Assembly (NCBI RefSeq): GCF_003258315.1
Contig: NZ_CP030032.1
Location: forward strand, 4,943,501 to 5,007,500
DNA length: 64,000 bases
DNA from: Bradymonas sediminis
GTDB lineage: Bacteria > Myxococcota_A > Bradymonadia > Bradymonadales > Bradymonadaceae
Direction of reading: 5' to 3'
Position 1 is the stretch's first letter. The number at the start of each line of letters is the position of its first letter. The notes under the pieces are model-generated. The model did no database searches, was not told the origin of the DNA, and saw only the letters and a list, made by a program, of their open reading frames with translations. Shown here piece by piece: positions 43,481-45,692 of this stretch. Position numbers and translations under genes: made by a program.

Positions 43481-44959
43481 GTGGACAATGGAATCTCGAT
43501 GAGCGCCGCCGCTGCGGTGCCGGCCACGATGACCTACCACGGCGAGCTCAATGATGGCGCCGGGCAGCTGGTGGACACGACGGTTGAGGCGACATTTCGC
43601 ATCTATGACGCCGCGGCAGGCGGCTCCGAGGCATGGAGCGAGACGTTTGCGACCGTGGACGTAAATAGCGGAAGCTTCTCGGTCCAACTCGGCGCCGACG
43701 CGCCGCTTGACGGCGTCTTTGACGGCAACGCCTATTGGCTCGAGGTCAGCATCAACGGCGAGACCATGAGCCCGCGCACGCCGATCGAGTCGGTGCCGTA
43801 TGCGCTGCGCGCGAACTCGGCGGCCAACGCCGACACCGTCGCCGGTCAAACCCCCGCCGACCTGCTCGCCTCGGCCAACGCCGCCGCCCCCGATAGCGCG
43901 GGCGATATCGCCTATGACAACACCTCCTCGGGCCTGAGCGCCGCGGACGTCCAGGCCGCCCTCGACGAGCTCGCCGCGCTCCGCGCGCTGGTCGCCAGCA
44001 ATCAGGCGGCGATCGCCACGAATAGTTCTGCGATCAGCAGCGCGCAGGCCGACATCGGGGCGAACGCCACGGCCATCAGCAGCGCGCAGGCGGATATTGG
44101 GGCGAACGCCACGGCCATCAGCAGCGCGCAGGCCGACATCGGGGCGAACGCCACGGCCATCAGCAGCGCGCAGGCCGATATCACGACCAACGCCGCCAAT
44201 ATCAACACCAACCGCAGCGATTTGAACGCGCTGGAAACCCTTACTCAGGATATGGCGCGCACCACGATTCATGGCTACCCGTCGGTGACGTTTACCGGCG
44301 TCAACGTTCATGTGCGCAACGGCCTGGGCACGACTGGCACTATAGATAGCACCGGTTACAGTGTGGTGAACGGCCTGGGCAATTTGGTCGTGGGGTATGA
44401 TGAAGGCCTGGCCAATCAAAAAACAGGCTCGCATAATCTCGTGCTGGGCAAAAATAATCTCTATTTGAGTTATGGTGGGCTGGTTGCTGGGAGTTACAAT
44501 CAAATTCGGGCACCATATGCCTCGATCAGCGGCGGCGTAAATAATTCAGCGTCCGCTTCGAATGCCTCGGTGAGCGGTGGTCGTGCAAATACGGCTGAGG
44601 GCGTCTATTCCTCGGTCCTCGGCGGCGTAAATAACACGGCTTCGGGCGAGGCTTCCTCGGTCAGCGGTGGCATTTATAACCGAGCCATGGATTCGAACTC
44701 CTCGGTCAGCGGCGGCTCGGAAAACACAGCCTCTGGAGCGTCCTCCTCGGTCAGCGGCGGCCACGCGAACTGGGCCACGGGCGAGGCTTCCTCGGTCAGT
44801 GGTGGCAACGATAATAGGGCCTCAGCCCTTCAATCCTCGGTCAGCGGTGGTAGGGGAAATACAGCGTCATCTACTGCTGCTACGGTCAGCGGTGGACTGA
44901 ACCGCCGCGCAGATGGCCCATTTGATTGGAGAGCGGGCGGCTTATTCGAAACATTCTAA
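43481..44959 (+). CDS. YadA-like stalk/head repeat protein with doubtful start
   Basis: 492 aa from a GTG at 43481; an ATG at 43499 (MSAAAAVPATM) is the alternative. Neither has a good Shine-Dalgarno. Residues about 15-120 form a beta domain (TMTYHGELNDGAGQL ... SVPYALRANSAANADTVAG) that often precedes fibre regions. Three copies of the 14-residue stalk repeat ADIGANATAISSAQ lie near 185-230. The C-terminal 170 residues hold about nine YadA-head-type repeats (SVSGGxxNxAxG). There is no outer-membrane anchor at the end. AAAAVPAT resembles the end of a signal peptide, but no hydrophobic core precedes it in any usable start, so the gene may be 5'-damaged. Confidence 0.7.
   Translation: MDNGISMSAAAAVPATMTYHGELNDGAGQLVDTTVEATFRIYDAAAGGSEAWSETFATVDVNSGSFSVQLGADAPLDGVFDGNAYWLEVSINGETMSPRTPIESVPYALRANSAANADTVAGQTPADLLASANAAAPDSAGDIAYDNTSSGLSAADVQAALDELAALRALVASNQAAIATNSSAISSAQADIGANATAISSAQADIGANATAISSAQADIGANATAISSAQADITTNAANINTNRSDLNALETLTQDMARTTIHGYPSVTFTGVNVHVRNGLGTTGTIDSTGYSVVNGLGNLVVGYDEGLANQKTGSHNLVLGKNNLYLSYGGLVAGSYNQIRAPYASISGGVNNSASASNASVSGGRANTAEGVYSSVLGGVNNTASGEASSVSGGIYNRAMDSNSSVSGGSENTASGASSSVSGGHANWATGEASSVSGGNDNRASALQSSVSGGRGNTASSTAATVSGGLNRRADGPFDWRAGGLFETF
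44032..44182 (+). repeat. 42-bp coding tandem repeat (ADIGANATAISSAQ stalk)
   Basis: Three near-identical 42-bp copies plus partial ends encode a coiled-coil stalk of 14-residue units. The few differences between copies are silent (for example gacatcggg versus gatattggg), so protein selection or recent duplication keeps them alike. Confidence 0.8.
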
Positions 44960-44987
44960 CCCCCCGGGTTAAATCCGAGCGCTCCCA

Positions 44988-45022
44988 CGCCGCCCCGCAC
45001 ACCCGTGCGGGGCGGCGTTTTT
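44988..45022 (+). terminator. Terminator after the YadA-like gene
   Basis: A 13-bp perfect GC-rich stem (CGCCGCCCCGCAC/GTGCGGGGCGGCG) with a 4-nt loop is followed directly by T5. It lies 29 bp after the stop codon. Confidence 0.92.
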
Positions 45023-45037: not shown

Positions 45038-45306
45038 CTACAGCGTGTATGAGCGGGTTTTGGGGGGCCAGAACACGACCTGCAGACTGTAGTAAGCCAG
45101 CCGGACTCCCCGGGAGCCAAACTACAGCCTGTATTCAGGGTTTTTCGGATAAAAAACGCGACCTACAGGCTGTATTTAGCCCGCCGGACTCCCCGGGAGC
45201 CGACCTACAGCGTGTATTCAGGGTTTTTCGGGTAAAAAAACGCGACCTACAGACTGTAGTAAGCCCGCCGGGCTCTCTGGGAGCCGACCTACAGCGTGTA
45301 GGTCGG
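45038..45306. repeat. Array of seven 13-bp palindromic sites at 41-42 bp spacing
   Basis: Sites of consensus CTACAG-N-CTGTA(G/T), with CGTGTAT variants, start at 45038, 45080, 45122, 45163, 45205, 45247 and 45289. They belong to an 83-84-bp double unit with two alternating 28-29-bp spacers. Spacer A contains GTTTTT...AAAAAC (for example tcagggtttttcgg). Spacer B contains CTCCCCGGGAG within taagcccgccggact. About three double units are present. The last site becomes a 10-bp perfect hairpin, CCGACCTACA-gcg-TGTAGGTCGG (45284-45306), and a run of 12 G (45312-45323) follows. No gene is seen in this 440-bp gap. Confidence 0.85.
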
Positions 45307-45398: not shown

Positions 45399-45692
45399 GT
45401 GGCTTCCCAGTGGTATTTATATGTTCTTCGATGCGCCGACGACACCCTCTATACGGGGATCACGACCGATCTGAGCCGGCGGGTGCACGAGCATAATCAT
45501 AGCCCGCGGGGGGCGAAATACACGGCGAGTCGGCGGCCGGTGGAGCTGGCCGGGGCGTGGGAGAAGGCGTCGCGCTCCGAGGCCGCCAGCGCGGAGTGGC
45601 ATTTCAAAAAGCTCACGCGCCAGCAGAAGCTGGCGCGTGTCGAGGAGGTGTCCGCTGCGGCGCTGAGCGCCTATTTAAGCGACGCCAGGTGA
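45399..45692 (+). CDS. GIY-YIG nuclease family protein (UPF0213/YhbQ type)
   Basis: 97 aa from a GTG at 45399. The GIY-YIG core is condensed as WYLYVLRCADDTLYTGIT (residues 5-22), with catalytic-type Arg27 (LSRRVHEHN), the segment GAKYTASRRPVEL, and Glu in SRSEAASAEWHFKKL, as in YhbQ-like small GIY-YIG proteins. Single-domain members are thought to act in DNA repair or nucleic-acid processing. The start lies 93 bp after the palindrome array, and the 3' end overlaps the convergent AstE-like gene by 22 bp. A role at the array is only suggested by position. Confidence 0.85.
   Translation: MASQWYLYVLRCADDTLYTGITTDLSRRVHEHNHSPRGAKYTASRRPVELAGAWEKASRSEAASAEWHFKKLTRQQKLARVEEVSAAALSAYLSDAR

What the first reader, a model, noticed from the sequence alone, without database searches (positions are those of the whole stretch)
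45038..45306. Seven palindromic sites at an almost constant 42-bp period next to a GIY-YIG nuclease gene
Seen directly: CTACAG-N-(C/G)TGTA(G/T) at seven positions with steps of 42, 42, 41, 42, 42 and 42 bp, i.e. four helical turns, so all sites face the same side of DNA. Two spacers alternate, giving an 83-84-bp double unit, and each spacer has its own inverted repeat. The last site is a 10-bp hairpin. It lies outside any gene, between a strong terminator and the GIY-YIG gene. This could be a protein-binding array, a REP/BIME-like family, a structured RNA, or the target of the adjacent nuclease.
Basis: partly seen in the sequence, partly recalled or inferred. Interest (0 to 1): 0.72.

Follow-up and report, generated by a model that had tools for sequence, protein, structure and literature searches.

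The report
Low-copy clustered extragenic palindrome arrays

Summary
There are seven TACA-N3-TGTA palindromes with steps 42, 42, 41, 42, 42, 42 at window 45038-45306, outside any credible gene. The genome holds exactly two more arrays (B at 4.348 Mb, seven sites; C at 1.007 Mb, three sites) with the same site and the same 41-42-bp steps, and no solitary sites. No paired site was found in 378 other genomes of the phylum. The neighbouring GIY-YIG gene is an ordinary family member: B and C lie beside other genes, and GIY-YIG relatives in the family lack the array. RNA structure is not conserved. The same genome carries RAYT transposases and a resident REP family (104 palindromes against 11 in the control) that also forms constant-period tandem arrays with alternating spacers (44, 99, 108/109, 45+79, 50+37 bp), so a constant period is usual for repeat arrays here and is not tied to helical phase. 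The best reading is a small orphan REP/BIME-like cluster family. It is not filed as REP: copy number is low, no RAYT is adjacent, and of five sites folded only site 7 forms a strong tagged hairpin. The main rival is a sopC-like binding array, favoured by site conservation exceeding spacer conservation.

The parts
45038..45306 (+). Array A: seven CTACAG-N-S-TGTA palindromes, six steps of 41-42 bp, 83-84-bp double units
45038..45049 (.). Site 1, CTACAGCGTGTA
45080..45091 (.). Site 2, CTGCAGACTGTA (one mismatch; GCAG instead of GTAG on the minus strand)
45122..45133 (.). Site 3, preceded by GGAG
45163..45174 (.). Site 4 (41 bp after site 3)
45205..45216 (.). Site 5, preceded by GGAG
45247..45258 (.). 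Site 6, symmetric core CTACAGACTGTAG
45280..45306 (+). Site 7 with its GGAG tag: GGAG-CCGACCTACA-GCG-TGTAGGTCGG, 10-bp stem, -10.6 kcal/mol as ssDNA
   Evidence: sequence
44987..45018 (+). Intrinsic terminator of the upstream gene (14-bp stem), isolating the array from it
43481..44959 (+). Upstream gene, 492 aa, head-repeat protein with a weak match to Bdello_MAT_N (below cut-off); neighbour only
45399..45692 (+). Downstream GIY-YIG protein, 97 aa; neighbour only, not part of the system

Best explanation
The array is one of three copies of a small, orphan, REP/BIME-like family of clustered extragenic palindromes. Inferred mechanism: a palindrome-bearing unit spread to three intergenic places, probably as a single-stranded hairpin handled in trans by one of the resident RAYT (TnpA_REP) transposases. 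It then grew in place by tandem duplication of a 42-bp unit (array B) or an 84-bp double unit (arrays A and C). The even spacing mainly reflects copying of a unit, not a requirement for helical phase. Shown here: three homologous arrays, extragenic position, tandem units, alternating spacers, resident RAYTs, and other REP arrays of the same build in the same genome. Inferred: RAYT involvement, and the absence of a dedicated function.
For: Exactly three arrays exist in the genome, and off-array near matches are at control level (10 against 20). All lie between genes, each downstream of a gene's 3' end. Array B holds nearly identical 42-bp units (TRF 97% matches, 5.5 copies), the mark of tandem duplication. 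Spacers of the three arrays are related (C1 against A 65% identity, p<0.0005; B against A 58%, p=0.003), so the period can be inherited. The same genome has five RAYT-size Y1_Tnp genes; two were scanned and both hit the NCBIfam REP-associated tyrosine transposase model, one above cut-off. Four of the five show Y---NP (sequences), the class 2 signature of PMC6006769. The genome's GGAG-tagged GCCAGACC-N5-GGTCTGGC family has 104 palindromes against 11 in the control, in constant-period arrays including 44 bp x8 beside a RAYT gene and alternating units of 45+79 and 50+37 bp. Site 7 has the same build, GGAG directly before a 10-bp stem, and the same stability as that family (-10.6 against -10.2 kcal/mol).
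Against: Only 17 sites at 3 loci, no singletons and no RAYT next to any array. Of five sites folded singly only site 7 is a strong hairpin; the other four are near shuffled level. The core is better conserved between arrays than the spacers (9-10 of 10 against 40-65%; Fisher p 0.001-0.05 per pair, pairs not independent), and the 41-42-bp step survived that divergence, which suggests constraint. [quoted passage not shown]
Confidence: 0.5

Rival explanations
1. A phased double-stranded protein-binding array: a dimeric DNA-binding protein binds each TACA-N3-TGTA dyad, and neighbouring dimers four helical turns apart assemble on one face, as on a partition or anchoring site (like F plasmid sopC) or as a regulator sink.
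For: The core is conserved while spacers diverge. Steps are 42 or 41 bp in all 14 intervals of three arrays, including the step to the inverted last site of B. Sites occur only in clusters. F sopC is twelve 43-bp repeats each with a 16-bp inverted repeat (PMC9178275).
Against: The genome has one ParB_N protein and standard parS sites near 4.55 Mb; no partition-type gene was identified among the genes examined beside any array; array C is about 1.5 Mb from the parS cluster. A constant period is common in this genome's non-phased repeat arrays.
Confidence: 0.32
2. A functionless minisatellite: a palindromic unit expanded by slippage and was copied to three places by recombination, with no transposase and no binding protein.
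For: Near-identical units in B; unit numbers differ (7, 7, 3); array absent from relatives.
Against: Three places on a chromosome with the same complex double unit need a mobility route; core conservation exceeds spacer conservation.
Confidence: 0.12
3. A structured non-coding RNA or transcript-level element.
For: Array A folds better than shuffles on both strands (z -4.2 and -4.9).
Against: Palindromes give this on either strand by construction; array B has z -1.3; orientation relative to the upstream gene is not conserved; no Rfam match at gathering level; no promoter-like site found.
Confidence: 0.04
4. The recognition target of the adjacent GIY-YIG protein.
For: Adjacency of array A and the gene (about 100 bp).
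Against: Arrays B and C have no GIY-YIG gene nearby; GIY-YIG relatives in the family have no array; the protein is a generic member of a very widespread family.
Confidence: 0.02

Closest known systems
REP/BIME elements and their RAYT (TnpA_REP) transposases
   Same: Extragenic palindromes, clustered tandem units, alternating spacer types, GGAG-tagged 10-bp hairpin at site 7; resident RAYTs and bona fide REP arrays in the same genome.
   Different: Only 17 sites at three loci, no singletons, no adjacent RAYT, mostly weak hairpins, head-to-tail orientation except B's last site.
GGAG-CCAGACC-N5-GGTCTGG REP family of the same genome
   Same: Constant-period tandem arrays, double units, GGAG tag, shared ...GACC...GGTC... 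arms.
   Different: 104 palindromes, strong hairpins, a RAYT gene between two arrays; different inner sequence and other periods.
F plasmid sopC (parS_F) centromere
   Same: Tandem 43-bp units each holding an inverted repeat; here 42-bp units.
   Different: sopC lies downstream of sopAB and is bound by SopB; here the sites are chromosomal at three places with no partition gene identified beside them and only one ParB in the genome.
TACA-N2-TGTA operators of BlaI/MecI/CopY-type repressors (recalled, not tested)
   Same: TACA/TGTA half-sites.
   Different: Spacing is N3 here, sites occur in long arrays, and no cognate regulator gene was seen nearby.

Membership tests
REP/BIME | Short extragenic palindromes | tested here: met
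   All three arrays lie between genes
REP/BIME | High copy number dispersed over the genome | tested here: not met
   17 sites in three arrays, no solitary copies above control
REP/BIME | Conserved tetranucleotide (GTAG/GTGG; GGAG in this genome's RAYT-linked repeats) at the foot of a hairpin | tested here: inconclusive
   GGAG before about half of the sites, GTAG on the minus strand at 15 of 17 (exceptions GCAG at A2, GTAT at B7), but of five sites folded only site 7 forms a strong hairpin
REP/BIME | Physical linkage to a cognate RAYT gene | tested here: not met
   No RAYT beside any array; the model of paired sites finds nothing around the 9 Y1_Tnp genes
REP/BIME | BIME arrangement: units in alternating orientation, reiterated in tandem | tested here: inconclusive
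   Tandem reiteration and alternating spacers met; alternating orientation not met except B's last site
sopC-type ParB centromere | Adjacent parA/parB genes or a dedicated ParB | tested here: not met
   One ParB_N protein at 2.247 Mb, canonical parS near 4.55 Mb, no partition gene identified by the arrays
sopC-type ParB centromere | Specific binding of a dimeric protein to each inverted repeat | not testable with these tools
   Needs a binding experiment
Structured RNA family | Conserved secondary structure across homologues | tested here: not met
   Array B z -1.3 against A -4.2; no Rfam match at gathering level
GIY-YIG homing-type nuclease with its site | Nuclease gene and site co-occur | tested here: not met
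   Arrays without the gene and genes without the array

The most novel reading that the evidence does not exclude
Three chromosomal, helically phased binding arrays of a non-ParB protein (an anchoring, segregation or silencing site system) specific to this lineage, built like a plasmid centromere but dispersed.
Probability: 0.18. Interest if true: 0.7.

Novelty: new variant of a known kind. Interest (0 to 1): 0.38.

Why it matters
It shows that perfectly even palindrome spacing in one intergenic region need not mean a phased binding array: in this genome constant-period palindrome arrays are a general product of REP-type repeats. If the rival reading held instead, it would be a rare chromosomal counterpart of the sopC centromere with an unidentified binding protein. 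Either way the three arrays are a compact, testable set.

Tried and rejected
G042 hit (E 0.005): an exact 42-bp-period array with CGACCTTCAGACTGTA, but it is coding, a 613-aa coiled-coil-like protein repeating ADLQTVINENAQHR; rejected as coincidence. Coding repeat in the finding itself: 42 = 14 codons and ORFs run through B, but 41-bp steps in A and C break the frame. Viral contigs: three pairs at other spacings and no array in the two inspected. Plasmids: no match. The GTAG-tagged minus-strand reading was considered: GTAG is nearly invariant there, but the four bodies folded after it make only weak, mostly shuffled-level hairpins. Rfam weak hits are far below gathering scores. Relatives at the MeaB gene: no carbonic anhydrase was found beside it in any other family genome fetched, so no empty site could be shown.

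Full report
Observation. The window was re-read and scanned. Seven TACA-N3-TGTA cores are centred at 45044, 45086, 45128, 45169, 45211, 45253 and 45295, with steps 42, 42, 41, 42, 42, 42. Six are exact CTACAGNSTGTA and one has a single mismatch. Two spacers alternate. A strong terminator closes the upstream 492-aa gene. The ORFs that run through the array are not credible genes, because the 41-bp step breaks the frame.

Copies in the genome. The window lies in a 5,045,683-base single-contig genome that is the only member of its genus among the genomes searched. DNA and pattern searches find exactly two further arrays. Array B (G000:C1:4347844-4348116) has seven sites; six point one way and the last is inverted, and all six steps are 42 bp, including the step to the inverted site. 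Array C (1006923-1007021) has three sites with steps 42 and 41. Off-array matches at two mismatches are no more frequent than the control (10 against 20). There are therefore 17 sites, all in clusters.

Distribution. A pattern for two sites 26-34 bases apart matches none of the 378 other genomes of the phylum sample. The single-site pattern gives only two single matches in 57 relatives. A sequence model of paired sites finds nothing convincing in relatives. Its best outside hit, G042, is a coiled-coil-like coding repeat with the same 42-base period by coincidence. Viral contigs and plasmids gave no array.

Neighbours. Array C fills the gap between the 3' ends of carbonic anhydrase and MeaB genes. 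Array B lies between NnrS and 2-phosphosulfolactate phosphatase genes. Array A lies between a head-repeat protein gene and the GIY-YIG gene. The GIY-YIG protein is therefore not a common partner. Six other family genomes carry a relative of it, and the loci fetched around them contain no pair of such palindromes. The nuclease-target idea is rejected on co-occurrence.

RNA. Array A folds better than shuffles on both strands, as any palindrome set would, but array B does not stand out (z -1.3) and C only mildly. The arrays run in both orientations relative to the upstream gene. An RNA role is unlikely.

What the same genome does elsewhere. Nine Y1_Tnp genes were found; five are of RAYT size. Two of these were scanned and both hit the NCBIfam REP-associated tyrosine transposase model, one above its cut-off. 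Four of the five show Y---NP (sequences), the class 2 signature given in PMC6006769. The flanks of several hold tandem palindromes. Next to one RAYT lie eight GGAG-CCAGACC-ATCTT-GGTCTGG units at exactly 44 bp on one side and further units at 108/109 bp on the other. Other RAYT loci have units at 67 bp and 111 bp. Genome-wide the GCCAGACC-N5-GGTCTGGC family has 104 matches against 11 for the control, in arrays with steps 45+79, 50+37, 98/99, 108/109 and 44. These periods are constant within an array but are mostly not multiples of the helical repeat. A constant period with alternating spacers is thus an ordinary product of repeat amplification in this genome.

Is the finding one of these? Site 7 reads GGAG-CCGACCTACA-GCG-TGTAGGTCGG, a tagged 10-bp hairpin as stable as the resident REP (-10.6 against -10.2 kcal/mol). 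The spacers of A, B and C are related beyond chance, so their common period can be inherited, and array B consists of almost identical units. These points favour a REP/BIME-like origin. Against membership: low copy number, no singletons, no adjacent RAYT, near-uniform orientation, and weak hairpins at the other four sites folded. I therefore describe the arrays as built and growing like BIMEs without filing them as REPs.

The main rival. Between arrays the ten core positions agree at 9-10 of 10, while spacers agree at 40-65% (Fisher p 0.001-0.05 per pair, pairs not independent). The 41-42-bp step has survived that divergence. Both suggest that the double-stranded sites and their spacing may be under constraint, as for a cooperative binding protein. 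F plasmid sopC, twelve 43-bp repeats each with an inverted repeat (PMC9178275), is the closest structural parallel. The genome has only one ParB_N protein and canonical parS sites near 4.55 Mb, and no partition gene was identified by the arrays, so a ParB centromere is unlikely; another binding protein remains possible.

Verdict. Real, lineage-restricted, most likely a low-copy orphan relative of REP/BIME clusters (0.5), with a phased binding array as the serious alternative (0.32).

Noticed in passing
G000:C1:861322-862875 (L204-L216): Thirteen 124-bp double units (45+79 bp) of GGAG-tagged palindromes in opposite orientations, nearly identical: a large, recent BIME-like array.
   Followed up: partly
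G000:C1:2524207-2526320 (L198): A RAYT gene flanked by a 44-bp x8 array on one side and a 108/109-bp array on the other: a REPtron with two different constant periods.
   Followed up: partly
window 43481-44959: 492-aa protein with head-type repeats; N-terminus matches NCBIfam Bdello_MAT_N (mosaic adhesive trimer fibre) at E 3e-9, below its cut-off.
   Followed up: no
window 44033-44182: The upstream gene also has a 42-bp period, a coding 14-aa repeat (SSAQADIGANATAI); coincidental with the array period.
   Followed up: yes
G000:C1:2247259 and 4545119-4562322: The only ParB_N gene lies about 2.3 Mb from the parS sites, an unusual separation.
   Followed up: no
L149:1754-1804: A viral contig carries two TACA-N3-TGTA palindromes about 39 bp apart in an apparently intergenic stretch.
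   Followed up: no
L153:1479-1662: Coding coiled-coil-like repeat (ADLQTVINENAQHR x4) whose DNA mimics the array site at exactly 42-bp period.
   Followed up: yes
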